A stretch of 54,692 nt of DNA, from NCBI GenBank assembly GCA_021785435.1, contig JAJYFE010000008.1, forward strand, positions 1 to 54,692, read 5' to 3'. The translations under genes were made by a program, and so were the position numbers. The stretch comes from Planctomycetota bacterium. GTDB taxonomy: Bacteria > Planctomycetota > Phycisphaerae > WQYP01. This document shows positions 8,842-37,675 of the stretch, piece by piece. The number at the start of each line of letters is the position of its first letter. Position 1 is the first letter of the stretch. Under the pieces are notes generated by a model, which was not told the origin of the DNA, made no database searches, and was given only the letters and a program-made list of their open reading frames with translations.

Positions 8842-9178
8842 CCGCGGTTTACAGAGACATCGACATCTTTGTCGAACCATGTACGGAAAACGGTATAAAG
8901 ATAGTCACCGCGTTGAAGCGTGTTAGGTTTGGTCAAGGCGCCATTCACGCCGACGATTTCAGCCGGGAAAGTGTGGTGGTTCCACTCGGCTATCCTCCCA
9001 ACCGCATTGACTTGATGACCTCCATTGATGGGGTTACCGAAGCCACGCCTGGATCGCCCGTGTGGCCGCGGAACTCGAGGGCGTGCCGACGAATTTTCTG
9101 AGCCGCCAGTTGTTGCTCCGCAATAAGCGTCAGACTGGGCGGCCCAAAGACCTCGCCGACGTGGAAGAACTGCGGTAA
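8842..9178 (+). pseudogene. Degraded nucleotidyltransferase-like gene (DUF6036/AbiEii-like), truncated 5' and frameshifted
   Basis: YRDIDIFVEPCTENG..VPLGYPPNRIDLMTSIDGV in the frame of ORF 8706, continuing as WIARVAAELEGVPTNFLSRQLLLRNKRQTGRPKDLADVEELR* in another frame ending at 9178. Confidence 0.7.
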
Positions 9179-17025: not shown

Positions 17026-18005
17026 GGGGGATTCTCTCCCGGGGCAGGGGTGACGGCAGCGTCAACAGGTCGCTGCTGGGAGGGGGATGAACTGGTCACC
17101 GCCGGCTCCCCCGTGGCACTGGGGCATCCGTAGCCGGCGATGTCCCCAGCCCCGCTGCGAATGGGAGTTGGGGGTGGAACTATTTCCGCCGTCGCCTTCC
17201 CGCCGCACGCCGTCGCCGCGCATCCGTTGCAGGCGAGGGCCGGGGCCCGTTGTACCGCGCGAATAATACGATCGGGATCCGCGGTCATGGTCAGACTTTG
17301 CCCCGGCGCAAGCACCAGAAAACGTTCATCATCCCAGGGTCCGGTCAGCAGGGTCCGCAATAATTCCGCGTCGCCATGCTGATGGTCCATCTGCCAATGC
17401 AACCAGTCCGCGCAGGCCCGGGTAAACGCCAGGTCTTCGGGCGTGGCTCCGACGCCCAAGTCCACATAAGTAGCCCGGTTATACGTGTTGAACCAGTGCT
17501 GCTCGGCGGACATTAAATATTCGGCGTTGTCTTCTCCATAACGTTCCACATACTGCTTGTGCAGCGTTTCATATCGCTGCGGCCCGGGCGGCACATGATG
17601 GCGGTTCCAGCCTGGGCTGTACCAGTAGGTACCGGGCTGCTGGCGAACATAGTCGGCATAGCGCCGACGGTCGCCCAAAAGCAGGGTAATGCAGTCGTGG
17701 GCGCGGGGAATAACCATCCGACAGCGCCGGGTGCAAACCTCTTCCGTGCCGCGGCTGCACAAACCGTAGCCCAGGACAATCACCTCCGCTTTCGGAACCT
17801 GCTGTTCGACGCGATCCACCGCCTCCTGCAGTTCCCGACGCAGCCGCGGTGGATCGTTGTGCAGGCCCTGGCGAAGTTTTTCAACATGCAGCACCTGAGG
17901 GCAGCTGCGTACAAAATGCTCCACTTCCGTTTCCAGCACGGCGCAGGTGATCACCACCACCCGGGTTGGTTCGCGTCCCCCCAGTTGTCCCAACCCGTTG
18001 TCCAT
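17022..18005 (-). CDS. DUF1638-family protein
   Basis: Start MDNGLGQLGGREPTRVVVITCAVLETEVEHF. VIVLGYGLCSRGTEEV, IPRAHDCITLLLGDRRRYADYV. The longer ORF N-terminus (to 18413) looks spurious. Confidence 0.8.
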   Translation of the reverse strand: MDNGLGQLGGREPTRVVVITCAVLETEVEHFVRSCPQVLHVEKLRQGLHNDPPRLRRELQEAVDRVEQQVPKAEVIVLGYGLCSRGTEEVCTRRCRMVIPRAHDCITLLLGDRRRYADYVRQQPGTYWYSPGWNRHHVPPGPQRYETLHKQYVERYGEDNAEYLMSAEQHWFNTYNRATYVDLGVGATPEDLAFTRACADWLHWQMDHQHGDAELLRTLLTGPWDDERFLVLAPGQSLTMTADPDRIIRAVQRAPALACNGCAATACGGKATAEIVPPPTPIRSGAGDIAGYGCPSATGEPAVTSSSPSQQRPVDAAVTPAPGENPP

Positions 18006-18409
18006 GGAATTTCCTTGCGTTTTGGCCAAGCAAAGTCCTCCATCGGCTCCAATGCCACATATTATATCCAGGATAGACAGGACAGATATAAGATCGGCAG
18101 TGGGCTGCGAAGATCCTGGCGGGGGACTGGCAAAATGGGCGGGGAGAGGGTTGGGGGCGGGCAGGTTCCGGCAGGTTTGCGGCGGCAAACGGGGTCCCGG
18201 TAGCCATCGGGACTGGGGGATGGCTGGTGGGCGCGATGCGGCGCGGGCCGCATATCCACAAATTCGGGCAGACCGTCGTGGCGCCAGGATCAACGGGCGA
18301 ACTTGGCGGGCGCAAAATGGCGCGAAAATGTAAGTGGTTGGTGTAACTGGAGTTGTCGGCGGGTCCGCCAGGTCCGCCAAGTCCGCCGAGTTGTTTATGA
18401 GGGTGGTGT

Positions 18410-19603
18410 TCAAATTTTCGATTCCGGCATGGGGTTGGTGTCGGCCGAGGGCTGGTCACCGGCGTGGAGAGACCAGAGGATGGAGGCGGCGGAGGGGGAG
18501 GGCGTGGATCGGATATGGAGGGCGGGCTTGGCTCGTTCGAGCGTGCGGAGCGAGAAGCCCGCGGCACGGGCAAGAGCGATGAGTTCCCGGCGGGACTTGG
18601 GGCCAGGTTGGAGTTGAGCGGCAAGCCAGGCGGTGCAGGCGTCGAGTTTGACGGGATCCGGACCATGGGGCTGGGGTGGTATGGACAACAGACTGTCGGG
18701 ATCGAAGCAGGGCTGCGACTCCGGATGCCAAACGATATGGCCGTCGTGGATGCTGTAGCCAAGCGGGGGTGGTTCGGGGGCGAGGTTATTTTTTACGGGG
18801 ACGAGCAGGCGGCGGTTGGGGTCGGGGTTTTCCTCACGGCGATCCCGGATGGCGGCGAAGATACTACGGGCCACACCAGCCAAGGCGGCGCCACCGGGGA
18901 CGCGGTGGATGGCGGAACGGTAGTGGGCTCTGGCCAGGTGGACGACCGCGAGGAGGGCCGAGCCTGTGTAGAAGGGGAGCAGCTGGATGTGTTCGAAGGC
19001 GATGTAGCCTTTGCGGCCACCGGCGCGGCAGGAATCGTCCAGGGCGGGCACCAGGGGATCCACGATAATGAGCTTGGCGTAGCCCATGGCGGCGATCTGG
19101 TCGCCGAGTTGCTGGCCGTCGCGCGGCAGTTGAACGCGGTAGCCCTGCAGGCTGTACCAAGCGGGAATGAAGACGCGGCTGGGATCAGCGCCGGCGGCGA
19201 GGAGGCGGGGGAGGACGGTCCGAGTGAGGTTGTCTTCACTGCCGATGAAAAGGACGTTGGCGGGGGGCCGCAGGGGGGTAGCGGCGGGTTCATCGGGCCA
19301 GGGGCGGCCGGTGGTGACGCGGGCGGCGAGATCAAGGGCGAGGAGGGACTTGCCGAGGCCGGGGTCGCCGGCGAGGACGGTGATTTCACTAAGAGGGATA
19401 TGGTCTTTCCAGAGCCATTCGGTGGCTGTGGGCGCATCGGAGGTGATGGGTTGGGGGGTGGGGCGTCGTGGCGGGAGGGGCGTGGGGCGGTCCGGATCGA
19501 CAGGCGCCGGCGGGTCATCGTTATGGTGGCGCAGACCGGACCGCGAGTCGTCGGGGCGGGCATCGAAGTTATCGTCTTCCGAATGGGGCGAGACGTCCAG
19601 CAT
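18410..19603 (-). CDS. AAA ATPase (AAA_25/RepA-like, RecA fold)
   Basis: PLSEITVLAGDPGLGKSLLALDLAARVTTG (Walker A), NVLFIGSEDNLTRTVLPRLLAAGAD, LIIVDPLVPAL. Start at MLDVSPHSEDDN. Confidence 0.8.
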   Translation of the reverse strand: MLDVSPHSEDDNFDARPDDSRSGLRHHNDDPPAPVDPDRPTPLPPRRPTPQPITSDAPTATEWLWKDHIPLSEITVLAGDPGLGKSLLALDLAARVTTGRPWPDEPAATPLRPPANVLFIGSEDNLTRTVLPRLLAAGADPSRVFIPAWYSLQGYRVQLPRDGQQLGDQIAAMGYAKLIIVDPLVPALDDSCRAGGRKGYIAFEHIQLLPFYTGSALLAVVHLARAHYRSAIHRVPGGAALAGVARSIFAAIRDRREENPDPNRRLLVPVKNNLAPEPPPLGYSIHDGHIVWHPESQPCFDPDSLLSIPPQPHGPDPVKLDACTAWLAAQLQPGPKSRRELIALARAAGFSLRTLERAKPALHIRSTPSPSAASILWSLHAGDQPSADTNPMPESKI

Positions 19604-20158
19604 GGGTTGTTCCTTTGAACCACGAGCTGCGAGCCAAAGAGACGATGCAGTTATAGTCGCGAAAGAGAGCGGATAATGCGGTGCAACCGCGAAGGAATTG
19701 GAAGATGGGAGCCAGGCGTTAGGAGTTGGGAGTGGGCCGGGTCTCACGCGCAGACGTGGGGACGCGGGTACAAACCCATGGGGGCGATGTTGGGGTACGC
19801 CAACATGAGGCAGCCCCCCATGCGTCCGTCGCACGGGCAACTCGCTCGGTTCGTCGTCGTGTGGCTGCTTGGTGAAATACCAACCCTGAGGTTTCTGACA
19901 AGGCGGTGATAAGGGGTATCTTGTTGGGGGTCAATATTCATGCGCCGCTGTTTTCTGGTCACTTAGGAGGTGCGCGAACCGAAACGTCGGCGGCGTATTT
20001 TCAAGGACGGGAGAGGCTACGGCGAACACCGGCGATGTCCGGCCTTTTTCCGCGTGCTCAGGGAGGTGGACGCGTGCGAACGCAGCGTGATCTGGAAGAG
20101 GCCCTGAGCGTGAAGGAAGGCTAGACCATGATCCTGGATTCAGGCCCGGACGAAGACG

Positions 20159-20271: not shown

Positions 20272-23200
20272 ATGGCTGGACAAGAGATGGGACCGCCGAC
20301 GACTCAGCGTGCGTATACCCTTCGGCTGCACGGCGTGGACAGGAATGACAACTCGTGGCGCGACGCGTTGTGGGCCACCCATGAGGCGGTGAACAATGGA
20401 GCCAAAGTCTTCGGCGATTGGCTGCTGACCCTGCGCGGCGGGCTTGACCACACGCTGGTGGACGCGAAGGTGTCCCAAGGAAAAAACAAGTCAGATCGCA
20501 ATCCCACCACCGAGGAGCGCCGGGACCGTCGCATCCTGCTGGCACTGTCGTGGTTGAGTGTCGAGTCCGCCCCGAGGGACGATGACGCATACAAGGCGTT
20601 CGTCATCGCCAGTGGAAAGGATGATTCCCAATCGGGCCGCAATGAGAAGGTGATGGGGGGGTTTCGTGACATTCTCTGCAGGAGGGGTGTGAATGGCGCC
20701 GACTTTGACGCGTGGGTCAGGGACTGCGAATTGTCGCTTTCAGCGGCGATCCGCGAGGACGCAGTGTGGGTCAATCGGAGCGCGGCGTTTGACGTCGCCG
20801 CCAAGGAGTGTCCGGGGTTGACCCGCGATGAAATCTGGGACTTTCTCGGACCGTTCTTTGGGGGTCCCGAGTCATACCTGCTTCCCGCGAGGTCTGAGGC
20901 GGGTGTTGAGGCCGGCGGGGGAGCGCCGGGAAAAGAAGACAAGGCCAAGGATCTTGTCCAGAAGGCTGGCAGCTGGCTGAGCAGCCGTTTTGGGAGCGGC
21001 AAGGGCGCGGACTTCGGACGTATAAAAAAGGTGTGTGAAGCGATTGCCAAGTGGGCAGAGGATCAGGTAAATGGTGCCTCAGGTTATGCGTCAGGCCGCG
21101 ACGCGCTCGCTTCGCTGGCCGCTTCGCTCGCCGGGTTTCGGCCGTCCACCAATGACGCCGACGGTATTTGTGGTCTCATCAGCGGTCCCGGCTACAAAAG
21201 CGCGACGCGTAACAGCATCGCCGCGTGGACGCAGGCCGGCGGGGTTACCGCTCAAGCGCTACGTGAGCTGGCCGAAACCGCTAGGAAAGATGCTGACAAA
21301 TGCGGGGATAAAGTCGATGGCAAAGGCCCACGCCCCTACGCGAAGATGATCATTCAAGGGGTCGAGGCCGCGTGCGGTTTCCCCTACCAGAAGGCGGGCG
21401 ACCCGGCCCGGCACCAGGAGTTTTCCGTGATGCTCGACCATGCCGCCCGGCGAGTAAGTGTGGCCCATTCCTGGATTAAAAACGCCGAGGCCGAGCGTCG
21501 TCAATTTGAAGCCGACGTCCGGAGATTCCACGAGGTTCCGCCCGATGCGAAGGCGTGGCTCGACTCATACTGCAAAGGTCGGACGAAGAGTTCGGGGGCG
21601 GTCGAGTCGTATCACATCCGCAGACGGGCAATCGGTGGCTGGGAACAAGTCGTCGAGCGCTGGTCACGCGGCGGCTGCGAGACGGCGGATGACCGCATTG
21701 CCGCGGCGCGCGGTCTCCAGGCCGATCCGGAAGTCGACAAATGTGGTGACATTCAGCTCTTCGAAGCTCTTGCGGAAGACGACGCGATGTGCGTCTGGCG
21801 GGTGAATGGTGCGGCGAATGCCGAACCTTTGATTCGCTACGTCGCCGCCGTCGCGGCCGAGGCCAGACAACGCCGGTTCAAGGTTCCCGCCTACCGCCAC
21901 CCGGACCCGCTGGCGCACCCCGTCTTCTGCGATTTCGGTTGCTCCCGCTGGAAAATCGATTTCGCCGTCCACGCCGCGGCTTGCAAATTGGATGGCGCTC
22001 AAGCACAAGACCGGCGTAGACGGGCTGAGAAAGGCCAGGCCGAGGATAGCCTTGGGGCGGCTGAAAATGCCCTCGCATGGCTGTCCTGCCGCCACGCTAC
22101 CACAATGACGTTATGGAACGGTCACGCGTTTGGCAGCCGCCTCCAGCTCCGATGGTCATGCAAGCGTCTGACCAAGGATATGGCCCTGCGGGATGCTGTT
22201 GTTCCGACCGCGGTCCCGGTCACTCGTGCTGATCGTCTGGGCCGCGCGGCCGCCGGTGTATCAGCCGACTCGTCCGTCCGTATTCGTAACGTGTTTGAAG
22301 AGGATCATTGGAACGGTCGCCTGCAGGCGCCGCGGGCGCAGCTTGACGCCATTGCCAAACGCGTGGCCAGGTACGGTTGGGACATGAAAGCCGAGCAGAT
22401 GCGCAGCCGCATCCGCTGGCTGGTTTCCTTCTCCGCGAAATTGCGGCCCGACGACGGCCCATGGGTCCGCTACGCCAAAATATTTCCGGGCGACGCTCCT
22501 GACAAACCTTTTGTCTCCCGCAGGGGCGAGTATGCCGTCAAACACCAAAGCAATGACTCGCGCCAGGGCCGCGCTAAGTTGGTCCTCGCCCGTCTGCCTG
22601 GTCTGCGCGTTCTTTCCGTGGACTTGGGCCACCGCTTCGCCGCCGCGTGTGCCGTGTGGGAAACCCTCACCGCCGAACAGGTAAACATGAGGTGCGAAGA
22701 GGCGCGGCACGCTCGGCCCGCGGAAAGGGACCTGTACCTCCATCTGGCTGGCGCGGGAGCGGGTGGCAGGAAGCGCACGATCGTCTACCGCCGCGTCGGC
22801 GCGGATTACCTTGAAGTTGTCGATAAGCAGACCGGCGAGCTCAAGAAGGAGCCGCATCCCGCCCCTTGGGCGCGGCTGGATCGCCAATTCCTCATCAAAC
22901 TGCCCGGCGAGGAGCGACCGCCCCGCGCCGCATCGAGGAATGAAATTCAACAAGTCGCTGATTTTGCCAAACGACTCGGTTTGGCCGCGGACGATGAGCG
23001 GGGTTGCGGGCGTGCCGTAGATGAGCTTATGTCGCGCGCCGTGGGCGTTGCCACGCGCGGCCTGAAGCGCCACGCCCGGCGTGCCAAGATCGCCTACGCC
23101 CTTGATCCAAGCTTAAAGACCATCCCCGGCATGGGCGGCAATGAAAAGACCTTCACGCCCGGCGATGACGCCCATGTCGCATTCCTCACGGATGCCCTCT

Positions 23201-24888
23201 TCGACTGGCATGCCCTGGCCACAGAATCGAAATGGGACGATAAGTTCGCCCGCGAGCAGTGGAACGAGCACATCGCCGCGGTGGACAACGGCTGGCCGGT
23301 CGCCCGCGATGAGGGCGCCGAGGGACCAAGCCGACAGCAGCGCCGCAAGAACGATGACGCCCTCCGCCAACGGCTCGGGCCAATTGCCGAGCAGCTGGCC
23401 AAGGTTGATCGGGCCGGCATGCACAAAGCTTGGAAGGAGCGCTGGGAAAAGGATGACGGTCAAGAAGCCGTCGTTTCTGCTGTTCCGAAGGATCAAAAGG
23501 GTCCGGCGAAGACATTGGTCGGCAGTCCAGCCACGGGGCTGCATGCCGATCTGCGCTGGCTCACGGACTGGATCATGGGCAAATATCTGGCCGGTGCGGA
23601 AGGCCCCGGCTGGAAGCGGAACGTCGGCGGCCTGTCCGTCACCCGCATCGCCACGATGAAGTCGCTCTACCAGTTGCACAAATCCTTCGCCATGCGTGCC
23701 CGTCCCGACAAGCCGTGCGGTGCGCCGGAGAAGGGTGAACCGAACACGCGCGTCGCGCAATCCATTCTCGACGCGATGGAGCGTATGCGCGAGCAGCGGG
23801 TTAAGCAATCGGCCAGCCGCATTGTCGAGGCGGCACTTGGCGTCGGCATTGAGCGTAACCGTGCTTGGGATGATCTGAAAAAAAAGTGGCGATATCCCGG
23901 GCGCCCACGTGGATTGCTCTGCCCCGCTGGCACCAAGGGCATCGTGCAAGGTGACCCGCGGTTTAAAACCTGCCACGCCGTCGTCATCGAGAATCTCACC
24001 AACTACCGCCCTGACGAAGTACAGACTCGCCGCGAGAATCGCCAGCTCATGGCCTGGTCGTCCAGCAAGGTCAAGAAATATCTCTCGGATGCCTGCCAGC
24101 TTCACGGCCTGCACCTGCGCGAAGTCCAGGCCGGCTACACCTCGCGCCAGGATTCCCGCACCGGCGCGCCGGGAGTCCGCTGCGCCGACGTGCCCGTACA
24201 CGAATTCATGACCGCTTCCTGGTGGCGAAAGCAGGTCAACGCCGCTAAAAGGAAAAAAGACGAGAAAACTGGCGGCTCCGCCCGCGATCATTATCTTTTG
24301 AGACTTGATGGGGAATGCAGAAATGTTCCGGCGGAAACGTGGAGGGATCGGCGCCCGCTGCGCATCCCCGTAAGCGGCGGGGGACTCTTCGTTTCGGCGT
24401 CGCCGTGTGGCTGCTGCAAGCGAGAAGATTCCAAAAGTGCGCCAGCCTTGCAGGCCGATCTTAACGCCGCCGCCAATATCGGGTTAAAGGCTCTGTTGGA
24501 CCCCGATTGGCCCGGCGCGTGGTGGTATGTTCCCTGCGATTCCGCTACCTACAAGCCGCATGCCGAGAAAATCAAGGGGAGTGCCGCGGTTGATTGCAGT
24601 ATCCCACTTGTCCAAGCGACGGATGCGATCTCGCCGGAGGCTTCTAATAGCGGAGGAGAAAAGGCTGTTCCCAAGGGATCTGGCAAGAAGGAACGCGATA
24701 TTGTCAATCTCTGGCGCGCCCCAACGCACCTGCCAATCAACGGGCATGACTCGTCATGGCGTGGCTCCAAGGGGTATTGGAGCGATGTTCAGCGCCGGGT
24801 GGTGGAGGTTATCGACGGGCCACGTGACCTACCCGATCGCGCCGCGTCGGTGGGAAGGGGTATTGCATCCACGGACGTTCCGTGGTAA
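20272..24888 (+). CDS. cas12b-like: Cas12b-related (type V-B-like) CRISPR effector nuclease, unusually large (1538 aa)
   Basis: RuvC-I LRVLSVDLGHRFAAAC (D784); RuvC-II VVIENLTNY (E1240), followed by ENRQLMAWSSSKVKKYLSDACQLHGLHLREVQAGYTSRQDSRTGAPGVRC, which closely matches the AacCas12b segment ENNQLMQWSHRGVFQELINQAQVHDLLVGTMYAAFSSRFDARTGAPGIRC; RuvC-III LQADLNAAANIG (D1396). N-terminus WRDALWATHEAVNNGAKVFGDWLLTLR resembles Cas12b. SD GGAGG before ATG. Followed by tracr candidate and array. Confidence 0.92.
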   Translation: MAGQEMGPPTTQRAYTLRLHGVDRNDNSWRDALWATHEAVNNGAKVFGDWLLTLRGGLDHTLVDAKVSQGKNKSDRNPTTEERRDRRILLALSWLSVESAPRDDDAYKAFVIASGKDDSQSGRNEKVMGGFRDILCRRGVNGADFDAWVRDCELSLSAAIREDAVWVNRSAAFDVAAKECPGLTRDEIWDFLGPFFGGPESYLLPARSEAGVEAGGGAPGKEDKAKDLVQKAGSWLSSRFGSGKGADFGRIKKVCEAIAKWAEDQVNGASGYASGRDALASLAASLAGFRPSTNDADGICGLISGPGYKSATRNSIAAWTQAGGVTAQALRELAETARKDADKCGDKVDGKGPRPYAKMIIQGVEAACGFPYQKAGDPARHQEFSVMLDHAARRVSVAHSWIKNAEAERRQFEADVRRFHEVPPDAKAWLDSYCKGRTKSSGAVESYHIRRRAIGGWEQVVERWSRGGCETADDRIAAARGLQADPEVDKCGDIQLFEALAEDDAMCVWRVNGAANAEPLIRYVAAVAAEARQRRFKVPAYRHPDPLAHPVFCDFGCSRWKIDFAVHAAACKLDGAQAQDRRRRAEKGQAEDSLGAAENALAWLSCRHATTMTLWNGHAFGSRLQLRWSCKRLTKDMALRDAVVPTAVPVTRADRLGRAAAGVSADSSVRIRNVFEEDHWNGRLQAPRAQLDAIAKRVARYGWDMKAEQMRSRIRWLVSFSAKLRPDDGPWVRYAKIFPGDAPDKPFVSRRGEYAVKHQSNDSRQGRAKLVLARLPGLRVLSVDLGHRFAAACAVWETLTAEQVNMRCEEARHARPAERDLYLHLAGAGAGGRKRTIVYRRVGADYLEVVDKQTGELKKEPHPAPWARLDRQFLIKLPGEERPPRAASRNEIQQVADFAKRLGLAADDERGCGRAVDELMSRAVGVATRGLKRHARRAKIAYALDPSLKTIPGMGGNEKTFTPGDDAHVAFLTDALFDWHALATESKWDDKFAREQWNEHIAAVDNGWPVARDEGAEGPSRQQRRKNDDALRQRLGPIAEQLAKVDRAGMHKAWKERWEKDDGQEAVVSAVPKDQKGPAKTLVGSPATGLHADLRWLTDWIMGKYLAGAEGPGWKRNVGGLSVTRIATMKSLYQLHKSFAMRARPDKPCGAPEKGEPNTRVAQSILDAMERMREQRVKQSASRIVEAALGVGIERNRAWDDLKKKWRYPGRPRGLLCPAGTKGIVQGDPRFKTCHAVVIENLTNYRPDEVQTRRENRQLMAWSSSKVKKYLSDACQLHGLHLREVQAGYTSRQDSRTGAPGVRCADVPVHEFMTASWWRKQVNAAKRKKDEKTGGSARDHYLLRLDGECRNVPAETWRDRRPLRIPVSGGGLFVSASPCGCCKREDSKSAPALQADLNAAANIGLKALLDPDWPGAWWYVPCDSATYKPHAEKIKGSAAVDCSIPLVQATDAISPEASNSGGEKAVPKGSGKKERDIVNLWRAPTHLPINGHDSSWRGSKGYWSDVQRRVVEVIDGPRDLPDRAASVGRGIASTDVPW

Positions 24889-25178: not shown

Positions 25179-27507
25179 GTAGCGCTCCCCGCAGCGAATT
25201 GAATCGGCTGACACGTATTCCCGGTCGGCTTCGCCTACGCCGGACTGGTAGTAGCGCTCCCCGCAGCGAATTGAATCGGCTGACACACATATATCAACCC
25301 GTCTGTGTTCACGCCGATCCGCGTAGCGCTCCCCGCAGCGAATTGAATCGGCTGACACTTTACTCATGGGTTTATCCCCCGAAAAAAAAAACGTAGCGCT
25401 CCCCGCAGCGAATTGAATCGGCTGACACGATGCGCACCAGGCATCCCGCCTGCTCCTTGCGGTGGTAGCGCTCCCCGCAGCGAATTGAATCGGCTGACAC
25501 CGCCTTTCCCGTAATCACTCAGAGAGGTCAATCCGGTAGCGCTCCCCGCAGCGAATTGAATCGGCTGACACAATCTTTCACGGCCAAGCCGATGCTGCCC
25601 GATGGGGTAGCGCTCCCCGCAGCGAATTGAATCGGCTGACACTGCGCGCAGGCACTGTAGGCGCGTACTTATCTACAGTAGCGCTCCCCGCAGCGAATTG
25701 AATCGGCTGACACACCGCCATTTCGTGGGGCGTGTAACCCTTGAGTGCGTAGCGCTCCCCGCAGCGAATTGAATCGGCTGACACGTGGATGGCGATGCTC
25801 TCCGGCAACGCGAGAACATGGTAGCGCTCCCCGCAGCGAATTGAATCGGCTGACACAACCAGAATGTGATGTACCAGCGGGGCGCCGCGGGTGTAGCGCT
25901 CCCCGCAGCGAATTGAATCGGCTGACACAACGCCCCCATCTCCGCCGGGTCCGGTGGTGCAAAGTAGCGCTCCCCGCAGCGAATTGAATCGGCTGACACG
26001 AAAAACTGCTGGTATCCAAGCGAAGGCTGGCGGCGTAGCGCTCCCCGCAGCGAATTGAATCGGCTGACACAGCAGGACGCGATCCCCGGCCACGGTGGTG
26101 ACGCCGGTAGCGCTCCCCGCAGCGAATTGAATCGGCTGACACCTCCGTCGGAGAAATTCTGGATTGACGGCGAAGAAGTAGCGCTCCCCGCAGCGAATTG
26201 AATCGGCTGACACGTTCATCACCAAAAGATATACAATTGTTGGCGGAGTAGCGCTCCTCGCAGCGAATTGAATCGGCTGACACTGTACATATGTCCATCT
26301 ACTTCACCGGTAGGGTATAGGTAGCGCTCCCCGCAGCGAATTGAATCGGCTGACACGTCCCTATGATTTTAGTAGGTGATGCCGATGGATGATGTAGCGC
26401 TCCCCGCAGCGAATTGAATCGGCTGACACACTGCCTCCATGGGCGGTTGTGACGCTTTACATCCGTAGCGCTCCCCGCAGCGAATTGAATCGGCTGACAC
26501 GCCTTGACAATGCGGGCACGAACGGCATCCCCCTGGTAGCGCTCCCCGCAGCGAATTGAATCGGCTGACACGGAATAGTCCACCCATGTGACGACCTTGA
26601 AGATCGCGTAGCGCTCCCCGCAGCGAATTGAATCGGCTGACACTTAGCGCCGATACAGCCTGTGCCCCCGCCCCCCGCGGTAGCGCTCCCCGCAGCGAAT
26701 TGAATCGGCTGACACCTCGGCCCACACGGACGGCAGACAGCTGCGGCGCGGTAGCGCTCCCCGCAGCGAATTGAATCGGCTGACACGTGCCGGGGAACAA
26801 CGGCAGGACTTGGCCTTGCCATCGTAGCGCTCCCCGCAGCGAATTGAATCGGCTGACACAACGGCCCCCGTGGATTGAACGGCACGGGGAAAAACAGTAG
26901 CGCTCCCCGCAGCGAATTGAATCGGCTGACACCGCGTCCATCACGTGACCTCAGACCTTAATATCGACGTAGCGCTCCCCGCAGCGAATTGAATCGGCTG
27001 ACACGTCATCGGCGTTGAACCCGCGGGCAACAACGTCGGAGTAGCGCTCCCCGCAGCGAATTGAATCGGCTGACACCTGCCCCGCGGCAGTATTGATGGC
27101 AATTTTCGTGACGTAGCGCTCCCCGCAGCGAATTGAATCGGCTGACACTAGATGGTTTAGATGCTAAAACTGATGTATCCAGTGTAGCGCTCCCCGCAGC
27201 GAATTGAATCGGCTGACACCACATATCCTTAAGGAATTCCATGATAGTGTAATGTAGCGCTCCCCGCAGCGAATTGAATCGGCTGACACTCATTTCTTGC
27301 ACCGGTAAATCATGGAGCATGGATAGTAGCGCTCCCCGCAGCGAATTGAATCGGCTGACACTAGGACGCTCCCTGACGGTCGCGGCTCGGTGTCGGGGTA
27401 GCGCCCCGCGCGGCGAATTGAATCGGCTGACACTTTGCAACGGCCGCGGGATTGCGATCCGCGCGGCTGCGGTAGGGCTCCCCGCAGCGAATTGAATCGG
27501 CTGACAG
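25179..27507 (+). CRISPR. CRISPR array: 33 repeats of 36 bp, 32 spacers of 34-38 nt
   Basis: Repeat GTAGCGCTCCCCGCAGCGAATTGAATCGGCTGACAC at 25179, 25251, 25323 ... 27326 (period about 71-72). The repeat at 26248 has one C>T. The last two (27398, 27472) are degenerate, so the leader is at the effector side. Confidence 0.98.
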
Positions 27508-27772
27508 AAGCACCCGGCGTACGGGCCGCCGGGCTAACCGGGGGTGGCGCTGATCGCATCGTCGATGGGGGCATCGGCGGCTACGTGGCGCTGGGGGCGG
27601 GGCAGCGGACGGGGGCGTCGGTTCTGGCCGCGGCCAGGGGAACTACGGATCACACGGGTCTACACCGATTCTTAACCGCGAGATACGCGAAAACGCGGAA
27701 GTGATTTTGGGAGGCACTACAGCCCTTGTTCTTCCGTTGTTCCCGGCTTGGCCCGGCGTTAGAATTTCCATC

Positions 27773-30700
27773 ATGGCATCGTCGGACCTGACCTTCATCA
27801 CGAACGAACCGGGCGGGACGTTGCGGCAGCGTTTCGCGGACCTGTTGGCCGCCGACACCAGCCGGTTCGACTGCCTGGTGGGCTATTTCTTCATCAGCGG
27901 CTTCCACAAGCTCTACCCCAGTCTCGAAAAGGTCGAAAAGATCCGCATTCTGGTGGGCCTGCGCACGGACGGCAGCGTCTGGGAGCTCCTGCGGGACGCC
28001 AGGGAACCGCCGGGCGTACTGCCGCCATCCCACGCGAGCGTCCGGGAACACGTGCCTAAAGACATGCTCCAGGAATTCGACACAGCCCCCTATACCGCTG
28101 AAGTGGAGGCCGGCGTCGGGAAATTTACCGAGTGGATCCGCTCCGGCAAGCTGGAAATAAAAGCCCACCCCTCCGAAAGGCTGCACGCCAAGTTGTACAT
28201 CATGACCTTCCGCGAAGGTGACCGGGACGCTGGCCGGGTCATCACCGGCTCCAGCAATCTCACGGAATCAGGCCTGGTGGAAAACCTGGAGTTCAACGTT
28301 GAACTGAAGAACCATTCGGATTACGACTTCGCCCTGGGCAAATTTAACGAACTCTGGGCGGCCGCGGTGGACGTTTCCAGGCCCTGCGCGGACGCCATAC
28401 TCCAGCAATCCCCCTATGCGCCCTTCACGCCCCACGAGCTTTACCTGAAATTCCTTTACGAATATTTCCGCGGCGAGCTCAACCGTCCCGCGGACTCGGA
28501 CGATCTCGGCGTTCCGAGGGGATTCAAGAAGCTGCAATACCAGGAAGAGGCCGTGCTGACCGCCAGGAAAATCCTCGAGGAATACGGCGGCGTGTTCCTG
28601 TCCGACGTGGTCGGCCTGGGCAAAACCTACATGGCCGCGATGCTCGCCCAGCGCCTCGATGGACGTTCGCTGGTTCTCGCGCCGCCGCACCTTTTGGACG
28701 CTGATAATCCCGGCTCCTGGCGCAACGTTTTTGGCGATTTCGGTGTCCGCCAGTCCGAATTTGAATCCATCGGCACGCTCGACGCCCTCCTGCGTCGCGA
28801 CTTGGCAAAATACAAGAACGTCTTTGTCGACGAGTCGCATCGTTTCCGCACCGAAACCAGTCGGACCTATGAAACGCTCGCCCAAATCTGCCGAGGCAAG
28901 CGCGTGATCCTGGTCTCCGCCACTCCGCTCAACAACACGCCGGCGGACGTTCTCAGCCAGGTCAAGCTTTTCCAGAACGGCGCCAGCAGCACGATCCCTG
29001 GCGTCCGCAATCTGAATGCGTTCTTCGCCAAGCTTCAGAGCAAGCTCAGGGGTCTGGACCGCCAGCACCATCGCGAGGCCTATTTGAGCGCTGTTCAGGC
29101 CAATGCGAAAGCCACCCGTGAAAGCGTTCTGAAATACCTGATGGTGCGCCGCACCCGTACCGAAATCACCAAATACTACGGCGAAGATCTCAGGCGGCAG
29201 GGCCTGGTGTTTCCCGAAGTGGCCGACCCGAAGCCACTCTACTACCAGCTCAATAAGGACGAAGCCGGTATTCTCAGCAGCACCATCCGATCGCTCACCA
29301 GCGACTTTAAATTCGCCCGTTACAAGCCGCTGCTTTATTTCGAGGGCGTGCGCGACGATCGCCAGCTGCAAGGCCAGCATAATCTCGCCCGCTTCATGAA
29401 AACCCTCATGGTCAAGCGGCTCGAAAGCAGCTTTCACGCCTTCCGGCTAACCCTGCGGCGTTTTATCAACACCTATGAGCGTGTGATCACCGAACTCAAC
29501 AAGGGCCATGTCTACATCAGCAAGGGATATATCGACAAGATCTTCGACCTGCTGGAATCGGACGACCCGCAGGCCGTTGAGGATTTGCTCGACGATGGCA
29601 AGGCCGAAAAGCTCGACGCCAAGGACTTCAATCCGGGCTTCCTGGCCGATCTGCAAAGCGATCGGGCGGTTCTGCGCTCCATCTATAGCCGGTGGGCGGG
29701 CGTCAAGCGCGATCCCAAATGGGAATCCTTCTGCGAAATCTTGCGCACCAATAAACAGCTAAAGCACGGCAAGCTCATCATCTTCACCGAGTCCCGCGAA
29801 ACGGCCGAATATCTCGCCGCCCGCATCGCCAGCGAGGTGGAGAAAAAAGTCCTGCTTTCCACCAGCCGTTCCGATGAAGCGGCCTACCGCCAGGTCACCG
29901 ATAATTTCGACGCCCGGGCGCTCCATCCAAAAGATGATTACCGCATCCTGGTCGCGACCGAGGTGCTTTCCGAGGGCGTCAATCTTCATCGCTCCAACAT
30001 CGTGATCAACTACGATATTCCCTGGAATCCCACACGGCTGATCCAGCGCGTCGGCCGCGTGAACCGTGTGGGGACCGGATTTGACACCATCTATACTTAT
30101 AATTTCTTTCCGACTGATGAGGGCAACGATCTCATCAAGCTGAAGGAGGCCGCCGAGGCTAAAATCCGCGCGTTCATCGAGATGCTTGGTAACGACGCCC
30201 GGTTGCTCACCGACGGCGAGGAAATTAAATCGCACGACCTGTTTTCCAAGCTCAACTCCAAAGCCACCCTCACCGGCGAAGATGAACAGGAGGAAACGGA
30301 ACTCAAATACCTCAGCGAAATCCGGGAAATCCGTGATAAAAACCCGGAGTTGTTCGCCCGTGTGAAACGCCTGCCTAAAAAGGCCCGTTCCACCCGCCTG
30401 ATCGGCGAAACCGCCGCCCCCGCCCGGGTGCGGCCACCGGCGCTGCTGACTTATTTCCGCCAGGGTCGGCTTGACAAGTTCTATGTCACCGGCCCCGGCG
30501 ACGCAGCCGCCGCCGAGCTTGATTTCATGTCCGCGGCGCGCCTCCTCAAGCCCGCTGAGGTGAAGGAACCGCTGCAGAAAATCGGCGGCGATTTTTACCG
30601 TCTGCTCGACAAAAACAAGGCCGCGTTTGAGGCCGCGACGAGCGCTGAGGCCGAGGAAGCCGCCTCCAGACCGGCCGGCGCCAACGACGCCTACATTCTC

Positions 30701-30988
30701 CGGCGCCTTCGCGCCCGTGAAATCCGGGGCTACGACGGCTTCACGGAAGAGGATGAAGCGTTCATCCAGCAGGTCATCGGGCACCTGTCGGACGGCGCCC
30801 TGCCAAGGAGCACGACCAGGAAAGTCGCCGGCGCTTTGCGCAGAGAGGCCGAACCGCTCAAGGTTCTGGGCATTCTGCGCCGTGATATACCGGAGCTGCT
30901 GCTGCAGCCCACTCGCGCCCAGCAGGCCGCCGGCACCGCCAGTCCGCGGGAAGTTATTCTTTCCTCCATGCTGCTGGAGGCACCATGA
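27773..30988 (+). CDS. PLD-like nuclease domain fused to SNF2/DEAD helicase (defence-type)
   Basis: N-terminal PLDc: RLHAKLYIMTFREGDRDAGRVITGSSNLTESGL. Helicase motifs VVGLGKTYMAAMLA, VFVDESHRFR, ILVSATPLNN, NYDIPWNPTRLIQRVGRVNRVG. Confidence 0.85.
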   Translation: MASSDLTFITNEPGGTLRQRFADLLAADTSRFDCLVGYFFISGFHKLYPSLEKVEKIRILVGLRTDGSVWELLRDAREPPGVLPPSHASVREHVPKDMLQEFDTAPYTAEVEAGVGKFTEWIRSGKLEIKAHPSERLHAKLYIMTFREGDRDAGRVITGSSNLTESGLVENLEFNVELKNHSDYDFALGKFNELWAAAVDVSRPCADAILQQSPYAPFTPHELYLKFLYEYFRGELNRPADSDDLGVPRGFKKLQYQEEAVLTARKILEEYGGVFLSDVVGLGKTYMAAMLAQRLDGRSLVLAPPHLLDADNPGSWRNVFGDFGVRQSEFESIGTLDALLRRDLAKYKNVFVDESHRFRTETSRTYETLAQICRGKRVILVSATPLNNTPADVLSQVKLFQNGASSTIPGVRNLNAFFAKLQSKLRGLDRQHHREAYLSAVQANAKATRESVLKYLMVRRTRTEITKYYGEDLRRQGLVFPEVADPKPLYYQLNKDEAGILSSTIRSLTSDFKFARYKPLLYFEGVRDDRQLQGQHNLARFMKTLMVKRLESSFHAFRLTLRRFINTYERVITELNKGHVYISKGYIDKIFDLLESDDPQAVEDLLDDGKAEKLDAKDFNPGFLADLQSDRAVLRSIYSRWAGVKRDPKWESFCEILRTNKQLKHGKLIIFTESRETAEYLAARIASEVEKKVLLSTSRSDEAAYRQVTDNFDARALHPKDDYRILVATEVLSEGVNLHRSNIVINYDIPWNPTRLIQRVGRVNRVGTGFDTIYTYNFFPTDEGNDLIKLKEAAEAKIRAFIEMLGNDARLLTDGEEIKSHDLFSKLNSKATLTGEDEQEETELKYLSEIREIRDKNPELFARVKRLPKKARSTRLIGETAAPARVRPPALLTYFRQGRLDKFYVTGPGDAAAAELDFMSAARLLKPAEVKEPLQKIGGDFYRLLDKNKAAFEAATSAEAEEAASRPAGANDAYILRRLRAREIRGYDGFTEEDEAFIQQVIGHLSDGALPRSTTRKVAGALRREAEPLKVLGILRRDIPELLLQPTRAQQAAGTASPREVILSSMLLEAP

Positions 30989-33900
30989 ACCGTGAGCAGG
31001 CCCGCGGCCTCGTGCGGAAGACCTTTACCCAGTCCTTCGACAAGGGCCGGTTTGGGGAGTTCATCCAAAATCTACTTAGCCATGTCGATGGCGACAAAGC
31101 TTTCGGCTGCAACAGCCAGTATGTGAAGGACGCGTTCAAGAGCCACGTCCACCGGTATGAGCGCCTGGGAACCTACACCGCCCCGGACAACCGCAAGGCG
31201 GATATCCTCGTCGTTGAGCTTACCCATGGGTCCAAACTTACCCGCGCCCGTACCGCCCTGCGTAATTTTGTGGCCGATTATCTCAACGGGCGTGGCAAGA
31301 AAGATGCCGCCCTGGTCGGGTTTGTTTCGCCGTCGGAGGTCGCCTGGCGTTTTTCCTACGTCAAAATGGAATACGCGACTGTTGAAAAGCCATCGGGCGA
31401 CATCGGTACTGAAACACGTTTGACCCCGGCCCGGCGCTTTTCGTACATTGTCGGCCCGGGCGAAAGCTGCCACACCGCGCAAACACGCTTCGTTGATCTT
31501 CTGCAAAACACGCAAACCGACCCGCAGCTGACGGAGATTGAAGAAGCCTTCAGCGTGGAGGCCGTTACCAAGGAATTCTTCGAACGGTACAAGGAGTTTT
31601 TCCTTGCGGTAAAAGTTGAACTCGACAAAATCGCGGCGGGCGATAAGACCGTGGGCGCGGAATTTGCCGCCCGGAAGGTCAGCACCATTGATTTTGCCAA
31701 GAAACTGATGGGCCAACTCGTCTTCCTCTATTTCCTCCAGAAAAAAGGCTGGCTCGGCGTGGCCAAAGACGCCCCCTGGGGCACCGGCCCGCATAATTTC
31801 CTGCGGAAGCTCGCCAGCGGCGATTATGGCCAACGGAAGAACTTTTTTAACGATGCGCTCGAACCGCTCTTTTACGATTCCCTGGCCACGGATCGCGGGC
31901 ACGAGGCATTTTGCGAACAGTTCAATTGCCGTATCCCATTTCTGAATGGCGGCCTGTTTGAGCCGCTGAACAATTACGATTGGCGCAAAACCGAAATCCT
32001 GCTGCCCAACCGCCTGTTCACCAATACCGATACCGACCCCGCTGAAGAGGGCATCACCGGCACCGGTATCCTGGATGTGTTTGACCGTTACAACTTCACC
32101 GTCAATGAAGCCGAGCCGCTGGAAAAGGAAGTCGCCATCGACCCCGAAATGCTCGGAAAAGTGTTTGAAGGTCTGCTGGGCGTCAGGGAGCGCAAATCGA
32201 AAGGTTCCTTCTATACCCCGCGTGAAATTGTCCATTACATGTGCCAGGAAAGCCTGATTAACTATCTCGACACGGCAATCAATGGTGGCACAGACATTCC
32301 TGTCCGTAACCCCCCAAACCACCAAGGTGCTCCAGGCATTCCTGTCGGCACACCGGCTCAGGGTGAAACAGGCATTCCGGCCTGCGTTTCAACCAACCAA
32401 GGTGGCACAGACATTCCTGGCTCTGTTTCATCCGCGGAAATTCACAAAACCAACCGCAATCTGCCCCATTGGACCAGAGAAGGATCAGTCTATTGGATCA
32501 CGTTCCGGCTCGCCGATTCCATGCCACAGGAAAAACTGAATGCCTGGCGGGCGGAACGGGAAATCTGGCTCGAGCAACACCCCCAGCCGTGGAGTGATGA
32601 GGATTGGAAACAATACGACGAAAGTTTAGGCGAGCGCCTGCAATCGTGGCTTGATGCCGGATACGGTTCATGCGCCCTTAGGCGGCCCGATGTCCGGCAA
32701 ATTGTGCAGGACTGTCTGCTTCGCTTCGACGGCCGGCGGCTGTGGCTCCACGCCGCGGTCATCATGCCCAATCACGTCCATTTGCTTCTCGAACCCGTTG
32801 CCGGTAACGAATTGTCTGAACTCCTCAAGGGCATCAAAGGTGCAAGCGCCCGCAAAGCCAACCAAATCCTGGGTAATACCGGGGCTGCCTTTTGGATGGA
32901 CGAATCATACGACCACATTGTTCGCAGTGAGCGGCAGCGTCAACACTTTATCCGCTACATCATGGAAAATCCTGTCAAAGCGAAACTGCCCGCCGGCCAG
33001 TATTGGCTCCACCAAGGTGACACAGGCATTCCTGCCTGTAAATCACAAACACAGACAGGAATGTCTGTGCTACCACAAACACAGACAGGAATGTCTGTGC
33101 TACCACAAACACAGACAGGAATGTCTGTGCTACCACAAACACAGACAGGAATGTCTGTGCTACCACGAACACAGACAGGAATGTTTGTGCTACCACAAAC
33201 ACAGACAGGAATGTCTGTGCTACCACGAACACAGACAGGAATGTCTGTGCTACCACGAACACAGACAGGAATGTCTGTGCCACGTTGTGACATTGAAACG
33301 TTCATCCACGAAGGTGACCGGATTGCGGATTATGACGCCGTTAAGGCCAACCATGGCATTAAGTTGCCCGCCGCCGTAAAAACCAACGCCCGGCTATTGG
33401 ATGAAAAACTCGCCGCGATCACCGTGTGCGATCCCGCCATTGGATCGGGCGCTTTTCCGGTGGGCATGATGCAGGAGATTGTCCGCGCCCGCTCCGCATT
33501 GACTCCGTATTTCAACGACACCCATGAACGCACCCCGTACCATTTCAAGCGCCACGCCATTCAGAACTGCCTCTATGGCGTAGATATCGACCCCGGCGCG
33601 GTGGAAATCGCCAAATTGCGGCTGTGGCTTTCACTAGTGGTGGATGAAGAAGATGTGCACCAGACCAGGCCACTGCCCAATCTCGACTACAAAGTGGTCG
33701 CCGGCAATTCCCTGCTGGGTTTTCCATTCAGGTCGGAACGCCTGCGGAAAATTGAGGAGCTCAAAGCCCAGTTTTTTGGAGAGACCAGCCACGATGTTAA
33801 AACGCGACTGAAGGCGGAAATCGATGGCCAGCTATCGCAGGCCTTCGCCAACTCGAAACGCAGCCTGGGTTATGCGGTGAACTTCGATTTTCGAACCGTA

Positions 33901-35112
33901 TTCTCCGAAATTTTCCACAGAAAAGGCGGCTTCGATGTCGTCATTGGCAATCCGCCGTACCTCTTCGCGCGAAACAGCAAGGAAAAAGGAATCACAGCAG
34001 CCGACAAACAAATATACCACGACGCGTACAAGCTCGCCCAATACCAAGTAAATTTATATCCGCTGTTCATCGAAAAAGGCACCAGCATATTGAGGGACCG
34101 AGGCAGCTTTGCATTCATCACGCCGAATAACTGGCTAACGATCAACACCAACGGATTGCTGCGGCAGTTTGTTCTTGGCCAATCCGAGGTCACAATTGTC
34201 AATTTTTTCGCCCGCATGTTTGCCAGCGCGGATGTTGACAGTTCAATTATCATTTACAAGAGGTCCGGGGAAAAACGGCGCATAAAACTCTTCGAATTCA
34301 GGACTGTCCTGGAATTCGTCACGGAGACCGATTGCGATTTTTTTCTGCAACAACGAGATTCGATCATAAATATCGACGCACAGAAGGGCGGCCGTGTTGC
34401 CGCGTTGACGGGGAAAATCGAATCGCAGGCCGACCGGCTCAGGGACGCTGCCGATGCCAAGGTAGGGCTCGGGGCCTACGGTCTTGGGCGGGGCATCCCT
34501 CCGCAAACCGAAGAGATGATTAGGAACCGAATATACCACTCCACAAAGAAAGCCTCACCCGACCACTACAGGTACATAGACGGGAGGGACGTGTGCAGAT
34601 ACCGCGTTGGCTGGTCCGGGGAATTCCTGCAATACGGCGACCACCTCAGAGAGCCACGACGGGACTGGAAGCTCTTCTCCTCGAAGCGCATCCTTGTGCG
34701 CCAGATTCCGGCAAATCCGCCCTATTGTATTCACGCTTGCATCGTCGAGGAAACACTCCTCAATGACCGCAACTCAATGAACATCGTCAACTTCCGCGAG
34801 CCGCCAGAGCTTGTTCTGGGCATTGTAAACTCGCGGCTCACATCGTTCTGGTTCGTCCACAAATTCGGCAAAATGCAGCGGCAGACGTTTCCACAATTCA
34901 AGGTCAACGAGCTCGCGGAATTCCCGCTGCCCCGTGGGAGGAACCAACGGCAGGACGAAATAATCCCTCTCGTTGAGAAGATTCTATCGGCGAAACGCGA
35001 CGACCCTGAAGCGGATATCAGCGCCATGGATCGAAAGCTCGACCAGATTGTGTATGAGCTCTATGGCCTGACTCCGGAGGAAATTGCGATTGTGGAGGGG
35101 GCGGTAAAATAA
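30985..35112 (+). CDS. Eco57I/TaqI-like N6-adenine DNA methyltransferase (restriction-type) with an in-frame RAYT insertion
   Basis: Overlaps the helicase stop. FYTPREIVHYM, then after the insertion TVCDPAIGSGAFPVGMM (SAM motif I) and FDVVIGNPPYLFARN (NPPY); C-terminal specificity-like region. Confidence 0.85.
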   Translation: MNREQARGLVRKTFTQSFDKGRFGEFIQNLLSHVDGDKAFGCNSQYVKDAFKSHVHRYERLGTYTAPDNRKADILVVELTHGSKLTRARTALRNFVADYLNGRGKKDAALVGFVSPSEVAWRFSYVKMEYATVEKPSGDIGTETRLTPARRFSYIVGPGESCHTAQTRFVDLLQNTQTDPQLTEIEEAFSVEAVTKEFFERYKEFFLAVKVELDKIAAGDKTVGAEFAARKVSTIDFAKKLMGQLVFLYFLQKKGWLGVAKDAPWGTGPHNFLRKLASGDYGQRKNFFNDALEPLFYDSLATDRGHEAFCEQFNCRIPFLNGGLFEPLNNYDWRKTEILLPNRLFTNTDTDPAEEGITGTGILDVFDRYNFTVNEAEPLEKEVAIDPEMLGKVFEGLLGVRERKSKGSFYTPREIVHYMCQESLINYLDTAINGGTDIPVRNPPNHQGAPGIPVGTPAQGETGIPACVSTNQGGTDIPGSVSSAEIHKTNRNLPHWTREGSVYWITFRLADSMPQEKLNAWRAEREIWLEQHPQPWSDEDWKQYDESLGERLQSWLDAGYGSCALRRPDVRQIVQDCLLRFDGRRLWLHAAVIMPNHVHLLLEPVAGNELSELLKGIKGASARKANQILGNTGAAFWMDESYDHIVRSERQRQHFIRYIMENPVKAKLPAGQYWLHQGDTGIPACKSQTQTGMSVLPQTQTGMSVLPQTQTGMSVLPQTQTGMSVLPRTQTGMFVLPQTQTGMSVLPRTQTGMSVLPRTQTGMSVPRCDIETFIHEGDRIADYDAVKANHGIKLPAAVKTNARLLDEKLAAITVCDPAIGSGAFPVGMMQEIVRARSALTPYFNDTHERTPYHFKRHAIQNCLYGVDIDPGAVEIAKLRLWLSLVVDEEDVHQTRPLPNLDYKVVAGNSLLGFPFRSERLRKIEELKAQFFGETSHDVKTRLKAEIDGQLSQAFANSKRSLGYAVNFDFRTVFSEIFHRKGGFDVVIGNPPYLFARNSKEKGITAADKQIYHDAYKLAQYQVNLYPLFIEKGTSILRDRGSFAFITPNNWLTINTNGLLRQFVLGQSEVTIVNFFARMFASADVDSSIIIYKRSGEKRRIKLFEFRTVLEFVTETDCDFFLQQRDSIINIDAQKGGRVAALTGKIESQADRLRDAADAKVGLGAYGLGRGIPPQTEEMIRNRIYHSTKKASPDHYRYIDGRDVCRYRVGWSGEFLQYGDHLREPRRDWKLFSSKRILVRQIPANPPYCIHACIVEETLLNDRNSMNIVNFREPPELVLGIVNSRLTSFWFVHKFGKMQRQTFPQFKVNELAEFPLPRGRNQRQDEIIPLVEKILSAKRDDPEADISAMDRKLDQIVYELYGLTPEEIAIVEGAVK
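32285..33283 (+). mobile_element. RAYT (REP-associated HUH/Y1 transposase) element inserted in frame in the methyltransferase gene
   Basis: Perfect 20-bp terminal inverted repeats GTGGCACAGACATTCCTGTC (32285-32304; reverse complement at 33264-33283). Length 999 bp (333 codons). Encodes IMPNHVHLLLEP (HUH) and HFIRYIMENPVKAKL (catalytic Tyr) typical of RAYTs. Confidence 0.85.
33045..33283 (+). repeat. Tandem palindromic REP array, 8 copies, 30-bp unit
   Basis: ACAGACAGGAATGTCTGT (stem ACAGAC/GTCTGT) at 33051, 33081, 33111, 33141, 33171, 33201, 33231 and 33261. Confidence 0.95.
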
Positions 35113-35237
35113 AATTCGGCGAATTGTGCGCCGGCCAGGAGAAGGAACGAACGTCGGCGGACGTGGTGGGGCTTGGGGGCGGAGGTCTGAAGCCCGCTGA
35201 ACGCTTTGCGTGCTGGGCGGGGGCGCACGGCGGGGGG

Positions 35238-35490
35238 GTGGCGCTGGGCGCAGCGAATTGAATCGGCTGACACGTTACAACGGCCGCGGGATTGTGATCC
35301 GCGCGGCTGCGGTAGCGCTTCCCGCGGCGAATTGAATCGGCGGGCGCGTTGCGACGGCCGCGGGATTGCGATCCGCGCGGCTGCGGTGGGGCTCCGCGCA
35401 GCGAATTGAATCGGCGGGCACTAGGACGCTCCCTGACGGTCGCGGCTCGGTGTCGGGGTAGCGCCCCGCGCAGCGAATTGAATCGGCGGC
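35238..35490 (+). CRISPR. Degenerate secondary CRISPR mini-array (4 decayed repeats, 3 spacers)
   Basis: Repeats at 35238, 35312, 35386 and 35458 keep GCGAATTGAATCGGC. Spacer 35422-35457 is identical to main-array spacer 27362-27397. Spacers 35274-35311 and 35348-35385 are near-copies of 27434-27471. Confidence 0.85.
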
Positions 35491-35526
35491 ATAAATGCCG
35501 CCGCTAAGATGGTTGGGGATTGGGCA

Positions 35527-37394: not shown

Positions 37395-37675
37395 GAGAAA
37401 CTCCTTTCAGTGCAGTTCCACATGCTCCCGTGGAGCATGAAAAGGGTTGTAACGCGAGCGTCCTAACCACCGGCGTACGGGCCGCCGGACTAACCACCGG
37501 CGTACAGGAAGCCCGGCCTCGTTTGCAGGACCGTTCCGCAAATACCAGGTTTGCACGCTTCCTGGCCCGGAGCGCTGGAAGCCCCGACCCATCGAAATAA
37601 TAGCCTGTATTTTATTGTAATCTTGGACTATATTGCGCAATTGGCAGGACAAGATTAGCGCCGTGGGAGCAGGAC

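What the first reader, a model, noticed from the sequence alone, without database searches (positions are those of the whole stretch)
27508..35237. Restriction-like PLD-helicase plus methyltransferase module nested between two CRISPR array fragments
Seen: the two-gene operon (stop/start overlap at 30985-30988) is exactly bracketed by the two array parts. Inference: either the module integrated into a CRISPR array tail, or repeats recombined around it, giving a composite Cas12/RM-like defence island. I cannot assign it confidently to a named system; only the PLD+SNF2 and Eco57I-like MTase architecture is supported.
Basis: partly seen in the sequence, partly recalled or inferred. Interest (0 to 1): 0.85.

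Follow-up and report, generated by a model that had tools for sequence, protein, structure and literature searches.

The report
Transposase embedded inside restriction enzyme gene
The two-gene restriction module next to a Cas12b CRISPR array is real and widespread, but its second gene carries a complete transposase with its own repeats inserted in reading frame, and the same kind of insert sits inside essential genes such as tRNA synthetases in many other bacteria, which suggests a mobile element that survives by being translated as part of host proteins.

Summary
A PLD(HKD)-SNF2 helicase gene (27701-30988) overlaps a Type IIG-like (Eco57I) methyltransferase gene (30985-35112). They lie between a 33-repeat Cas12b array (25179-27507) and four degenerate repeat units (35238-35493). 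The gene pair is a widespread two-gene system (partner found at 69 of 79 named loci). The CRISPR bracket is not conserved: 0 of 91 related loci have an array. Its duplicated end 'spacers' are dispersed genomic repeats.

The methyltransferase ORF holds an in-frame 999-bp insert (32278-33276): a full REP-associated tyrosine transposase (RAYT; HUH and Tyr intact) between GTAG-type REP palindromes. It has no start codon of its own. Relatives show empty, REP-only and REP-RAYT-REP alleles. RAYT synonymous divergence is lower than the host gene's (0.15 against 1.2-1.4 in the closest pair), with omega 0.16-0.28.

The same arrangement recurs in frame in ValRS, LeuRS, IleRS, AlaRS, PurH, DinG/YoaA helicases and other DNA methylases. 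For ValRS there are empty sites within one genus. Intragenic REPs were known; whole RAYTs carried in frame inside essential proteins appear undescribed in the papers searched. Best reading: an unspliced, intein-like mobile insert. Expression and activity are untested.

The parts
20272..24888 (+). Cas12b effector (1538 aa)
   Evidence: NF033949 943 bits; closest solved chain 9kln
25179..27507 (+). CRISPR array, 33 repeats of 36 nt; the last two repeats are degenerate and the last two spacers, A (27362-27397) and B (27434-27471), are dispersed genomic repeats
27701..30988 (+). PLD(HKD)-SNF2 helicase, putative restriction subunit (GTG start as listed; alignments to relatives begin at about codon 25, near the ATG at 27773)
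30985..35112 (+). Type IIG-like adenine methyltransferase/restriction gene, 1375 aa including the in-frame insert
   Evidence: PDLC03596 837 bits; Eco57I, TaqI_C
30985..32277 (+). host part 1 (N-terminal region to INYLDTA)
32278..33276 (+). in-frame insert (999 bp) REP-RAYT-REP; absent from relative G054 (8 aa at this place) and REP-only in G156 and G033
32278..32442 (+). left REP block, GTGG/GTAG-type palindromes, no in-frame ATG/GTG/TTG
32443..33012 (+). RAYT domain; HUH H597-V-H599; predicted catalytic Tyr Y642
   Evidence: NF047646 61 bits; Y1_Tnp; fold match 4er8 RAYT-REP complex
33013..33276 (+). right REP block with about 8 tandem 30-nt palindromic units (33044-33280) encoding PQTQTGMSVL
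33277..35112 (+). host part 2 (motif I DPAIGSGAF, NPPY, TaqI_C specificity domain)
35238..35493 (+). degenerate distal array fragment: four repeats with spacers B', B, A

Best explanation
27701-35112 is a two-gene restriction-modification-like defence system: an HKD nuclease-SNF2 translocase plus a Type IIG-like adenine methyltransferase. Its methyltransferase gene carries an in-frame mobile insert, a complete RAYT between its cognate REP palindromes. The insert has no start codon of its own, so full-length RAYT can only be made as a domain tethered by flexible REP-encoded linkers in a loop of the host enzyme. The RAYT is inferred to cut and paste REP hairpins in single-stranded DNA. It thereby spreads REPs and, at times, itself, into loops of other genes. 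Because the insert reads through in frame, it is tolerated without splicing. Lodging in important or essential genes (tRNA synthetases, PurH) guarantees its expression and makes imprecise loss costly, as for inteins. Shown: in-frame structure, allele series, conserved active site, purifying selection, lower divergence than the host gene, recurrence in many hosts. Inferred: translation of the fusion, transposase activity, host enzyme function, defence function. The CRISPR bracket is a side feature: the old end of the array, holding dispersed genomic repeats as its last 'spacers', flanks the module through insertion or local recombination.
For: In-frame RAYT and REPs, no stop, no start codon between codons 424 and 511. 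Allele series empty/REP-only/REP-RAYT-REP in one family. dS for G000-G097: RAYT 0.148 against 1.44 and 1.19 in the flanking host parts; RAYT omega 0.16-0.28. A second such case in ValRS, G295-G122, pS 0.23 against 0.74 and 0.71. HUH and a Tyr-like motif found in all 48 copies examined. Same-genus ValRS: G218 occupied, with a single ValRS match; G336, G178, G398, G399 empty; G339 REP-only. Hosts confirmed by family models: ValRS, LeuRS, IleRS, AlaRS, PurH, DinG/YoaA, DUF1156, Type ISP, N4/N6 methylase. RAYTs cluster by host gene on their tree: 12 changes against 27.6 shuffled. Confident RAYT fold between disordered linkers, best match the RAYT-REP complex 4er8. G024 has 59 cognate REP sites, many in inverted pairs, while its only close RAYT is the embedded one. 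Helicase-methyltransferase pair at 69 of 79 named loci.
Against: Nearly all genomes are draft MAGs. No transcript, protein or activity data. Large-ORF ascertainment favours in-frame copies; out-of-frame insertions were not systematically sought. In the window's own genome the cognate REPs are confined to two IIG paralogues, so spread in trans is not visible there. The host enzyme could be inactive.
Confidence: 0.75

Rival explanations
1. The insert is decaying junk: a dead REPtron that happens to leave the reading frame open.
For: REP-only alleles exist; REP blocks are repetitive and predicted disordered.
Against: Active-site motifs kept in all 48 copies; RAYT omega 0.16-0.28; recurrence in frame in about ten host families, several of them essential; confident RAYT fold.
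Confidence: 0.1
2. The insert is removed before or during protein synthesis (self-splicing intron as in IStrons, intein, or ribosomal bypassing across the REP hairpins).
For: IStrons join insertion sequences to group I introns that splice from host mRNA (PMC4227781); the REPs form stable hairpins.
Against: No Rfam match in four occupied loci; no intein model in the family scans; removal would not require the frame to be kept, yet host, REPs and RAYT share one frame in all collected cases; no separate RAYT start in the window gene.
Confidence: 0.1
3. The RAYT is a domesticated functional domain of the restriction enzyme (for example a single-strand nuclease arm), not a mobile insert.
For: RAYTs in Type IIG genes of several phyla form one of the lineages on the tree.
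Against: Patchy presence among near relatives; two or more different insertion sites in the same gene; same element class in ValRS, LeuRS, PurH and others; lower synonymous divergence than the host gene.
Confidence: 0.12
4. The CRISPR bracket, or the whole arrangement, is an assembly artefact.
For: Repeats on both sides of the module; draft genome of 234 contigs.
Against: The pair and its order recur in independent assemblies. The right fragment holds degenerate repeats, not a copy of the left array. For the bracket itself no independent assembly exists.
Confidence: 0.08

Closest known systems
RAYT/REP systems (REPtrons, REPINs; PMC2817692, PMC3116915, PMC8049555)
   Same: HUH-Tyr RAYT flanked by GTAG-type palindromes in opposite orientation; cognate REPs dispersed as inverted pairs in some relatives; best fold match 4er8
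   Different: Known RAYTs are described as standalone genes; here the RAYT is an internal in-frame part of a host protein with no start codon of its own
Intragenic REPs / Rickettsia palindromic elements (PMC3733652)
   Same: Palindromic repeats translated in frame inside host genes, including tRNA synthetase and repair genes
   Different: Those inserts are REPs only (clusters encode up to 82 aa); the transposase is not inside the host gene in the sections read
Unexpectedly long TnpA_Y1 proteins (PMC6006769)
   Same: The 2018 survey met a few long proteins in each subclass
   Different: It called them gene fusions or annotation errors and discarded them; no host, allele or insertion analysis was found there
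Inteins and IStrons
   Same: Selfish elements that persist inside essential or conserved genes, patchy in occurrence
   Different: No splicing element detected; insert predicted to stay in the mature protein; HUH transposase rather than homing endonuclease
DUF499-centred BREX-related (Hma) Type-2 systems (PMC12839542)
   Same: HKD-SNF2 helicase effector plus N6 methyltransferase
   Different: The conserved unit here is two genes; no DUF499 or DUF3780 among the window neighbours scanned
DISARM DrmD/DrmMI and PADLOC C3a139 (HKD+Snf2)
   Same: Helicase scores to C3a139 (156 bits) and DrmD
   Different: Far below NCBIfam cut-offs (127 against 610 bits for DrmD); no DrmA/B/C gene set seen beside it

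Membership tests
RAYT (REP-associated tyrosine transposase) | HUH motif and catalytic Tyr in the RAYT profile | tested here: met
   NF047646 E 1e-16, 61 bits, below its 80-bit cut-off in the window; HVH and WMDESYDH; other embedded copies exceed the cut-off (94.4 and 83.9 bits)
RAYT (REP-associated tyrosine transposase) | Flanking tagged palindromic REPs in opposite orientation | tested here: met
   Left units and tandem right units lie in opposite orientation; the right unit in reverse complement reads GTAG-CACAGACA-TTCC-TGTCTGTG
RAYT (REP-associated tyrosine transposase) | Cleaves or moves REPs | not testable with these tools
   Only indirect: 59 cognate REP sites in G024, whose sole close RAYT is embedded
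Intein | Protein-splicing domain | tested here: not met
   No Hint/intein model among the Pfam and NCBIfam hits
IStron | Group I intron around the transposase | tested here: not met
   No Rfam match in window, L085, L072, L129
Type IIG restriction enzyme | Fused N-terminal region, Eco57I-type methylase and TaqI-like specificity domain | tested here: met
   PDLC03596 837 bits; Eco57I, N6_Mtase, TaqI_C; N-terminal nuclease activity not shown
DUF499-centred BREX-related (Hma) system | DUF499 ATPase in the operon | tested here: not met
   No DUF499 match in the neighbouring window genes scanned
DISARM | DrmA and DrmB with DrmC (PLD) | tested here: inconclusive
   No such gene apparent among neighbouring window genes by Pfam, but PADLOC was run only on the five central genes
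Type V-B CRISPR-Cas | Cas12b next to a CRISPR array | tested here: met
   NF033949 943 bits; 31 near-identical and 2 degenerate repeats; Cas1/2/4 and tracrRNA not tested

The most novel reading that the evidence does not exclude
A widespread class of unspliced, intein-like transposable elements: RAYT transposases that exist as permanently translated in-frame domains of essential or defence enzymes, move between alleles of the same host gene, and mobilise REPs in trans from within the host protein.
Probability: 0.5. Interest if true: 0.92.

Novelty: new variant of a known kind. Interest (0 to 1): 0.85.

Why it matters
RAYTs are described as single-copy, long-lived, 'domesticated' transposases whose function is unknown and whose REPIN populations persist in ways that needed modelling to explain (PMC8049555). 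If RAYTs can live as in-frame parts of essential enzymes, one route to persistence becomes obvious and testable: they are expressed with the host gene and cannot be lost imprecisely. It would also add a third solution, besides inteins and introns, to surviving inside an essential gene: be a harmless translated domain. Annotators would need to expect transposase domains inside tRNA synthetases and restriction enzymes rather than discard them as errors. The conserved helicase-methyltransferase pair is also a concrete defence candidate.

Tried and rejected
The Cas12b protein (1538 aa) was checked for an insert because of its length; it aligns through most of its length to the 1496-aa solved relative 9kln, so its length is native. 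The array tail was considered as a REP artefact; the CRISPR repeat itself is not dispersed, so it is a true array end. Conserved CRISPR nesting was tested and not found. BREX-related membership was tested and not met. Intron or other known RNA in the insert: none. Paper searches for RAYT inside tRNA synthetase genes found nothing relevant. An early Pfam search of the genome (PF18510) was uninformative.

Full report
What is in the window. A Cas12b gene (20272-24888) is followed by an array of 33 repeats (25179-27507). Then come two overlapping genes: a PLD-SNF2 helicase (27701-30988) and an Eco57I-type methyltransferase (30985-35112). Four degenerate repeat units follow at 35238-35493. The repeat core is found nowhere else in the 4.4-Mb genome at up to one mismatch, so the bracket is not chance. 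The last two spacers of the left part recur in the right part. Both belong to dispersed repeat families (24 and 17 sites). One family surrounds another RAYT gene in this genome (contig 22: RAYT at 9292-9558, repeats at 8393-9682). The old end of the array thus holds REP-like units as spacers, and the module sits inside that old end, by insertion or by recombination between units. The data do not decide which.

The defence module. The helicase gene lies upstream of the methyltransferase gene in all 12 relatives first fetched, and no Cas12b does. It is present at 69 of 79 named loci from many phyla; several of the others are short contigs. None of 91 related loci has a CRISPR array; the one repeat call, L135, is a run of REPs. 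By analogy with HKD-helicase/N6-methylase systems (PMC12839542, PMC10853773) it most likely marks self DNA by adenine methylation and attacks unmarked DNA with a translocating HKD nuclease. That is inference. No DUF499 partner was found next to it.

The insert. The methyltransferase ORF is 1375 aa and contains a match to REP-associated tyrosine transposases at aa 584-668, with the whole RAYT spanning about aa 486-676. It is flanked by palindromic repeats; the right block has about eight tandem 30-nt units. Read in reverse complement the unit is GTAG followed by a nine-pair hairpin (z-score -4.9), the tag class known for RAYT-associated REPs (PMC3733652). Host, repeats and RAYT share one frame. 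Between host codon 424 and codon 511, which lies inside the RAYT, there is no ATG, GTG or TTG, so a full RAYT can only be made as part of the host protein. Among family members G054 has no insert, G156 and G033 have repeats only, and G000, G114, G097, G024 and G079 have repeats, RAYT and repeats, all in frame and at the same site (the G114 contig ends inside the right repeats). In other phyla RAYTs sit at the same site (two near-identical Bacteroidetes assemblies, Contendobacter, Brocadia) or at a second site after motif I (Smithella, Ignavibacteria), and once inside the helicase gene (L185).

Mobility and selection. For the pair G000-G097 the RAYT has dS 0.148, while the flanking host parts have 1.44 and 1.19. 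RAYT dS is the lower value for all ten pairs, clearly so for most; omega is 0.16-0.28. The simplest reading is that RAYTs entered or were exchanged after the host genes diverged, and that their coding function is kept. A second case in ValRS (G295-G122: 0.23 against 0.74 and 0.71, uncorrected) points the same way; the other ValRS pairs are near saturation and show no such difference.

How general it is. In 199 genomes of the class, 72 RAYT places were listed and 36 lie in open frames of at least 700 aa (my count from the table). Hosts verified by family models include ValRS (17 ORFs in the first set), DinG/YoaA helicases, DUF1156 methylases, Type ISP enzymes and N4/N6 methylases. A second set added LeuRS, IleRS, AlaRS, PurH, a DrmD-like helicase and a hydroxylase; for one IleRS and the PurH ORF the RAYT was identified with a profile built here. 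For ValRS there is a clean series within one genus: G218 is occupied and shows one ValRS match, G336, G178, G398 and G399 are empty, and G339, 96% identical over most of the gene, has a single repeat. RAYTs cluster by host gene (12 label changes against 27.6 in shuffles), as expected if they move mainly between alleles of the same gene or are inherited with it. Frequencies are biased by the way loci were found.

Mechanism. AlphaFold2 gives the RAYT as a confident module (most blocks pLDDT 83-96) between disordered repeat-encoded linkers; its best match is the RAYT-REP hairpin complex 4er8 (overall pTM 0.44). G024 has 59 cognate repeat sites, many as inverted pairs, and its only close RAYT is the embedded one. 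That suggests the fusion can act in trans. In the window's genome all 19 sites listed by the narrower pattern lie in the two IIG paralogues. No intron family was found.

Prior work. REPs translated inside host genes, including tRNA synthetases and repair genes, are known (PMC3733652). Long RAYT-type proteins were seen and set aside as fusions or errors (PMC6006769). I found no description of whole RAYTs inside essential genes in the library searched; it lacks most subscription papers, so absence is not proof.

Limits. Draft MAGs, no expression data, ascertainment through open frames, and E-value cut-offs that hide distant RAYTs. Essentiality of the tRNA synthetases and PurH is taken from general knowledge, and copy number was looked at only for ValRS.

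Noticed in passing
window 27362-27471 and 35274-35457: The only spacers shared by the two array parts are dispersed genomic repeats of spacer length; one of these families surrounds another RAYT gene. They may be self-derived spacers acquired from REPs.
   Followed up: partly
L036 (G000 contig 29, 36500-40500): A second CRISPR array in the same genome, repeat ATTTCTGCGGGGCTGCGGCCCCGCAGCGGATTGAAAC, about 45 copies seen.
   Followed up: no
L021 (G000 contig 55, 1-2100): A second Type IIG paralogue whose contig starts inside the same in-frame REP array.
   Followed up: partly
L020 (G000 contig 182): DUF1156 methylase (1288 aa) in the same genome with another RAYT in frame and a different REP family (GTGFQPV...GHGQDAHAT).
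   Followed up: partly
L003 / L041 (G000 contig 212): A free-standing RAYT ORF (314 aa) whose own reading frame extends through its flanking REPs on both sides.
   Followed up: no
G033: 34 REP sites of the embedded type but no RAYT match in the genome: a possible orphan REPIN population.
   Followed up: no
window 37463-37513: Copies of the 26-nt repeat (CCGGCGTACGGGCCGCCGG...) that also follows the last left CRISPR repeat (27514).
   Followed up: no
window 15115-19840 (-): Gene run with RACo-like, DUF1638 and AAA_25 proteins just upstream of Cas12b; no Cas1/2/4 seen in the genes scanned.
   Followed up: no
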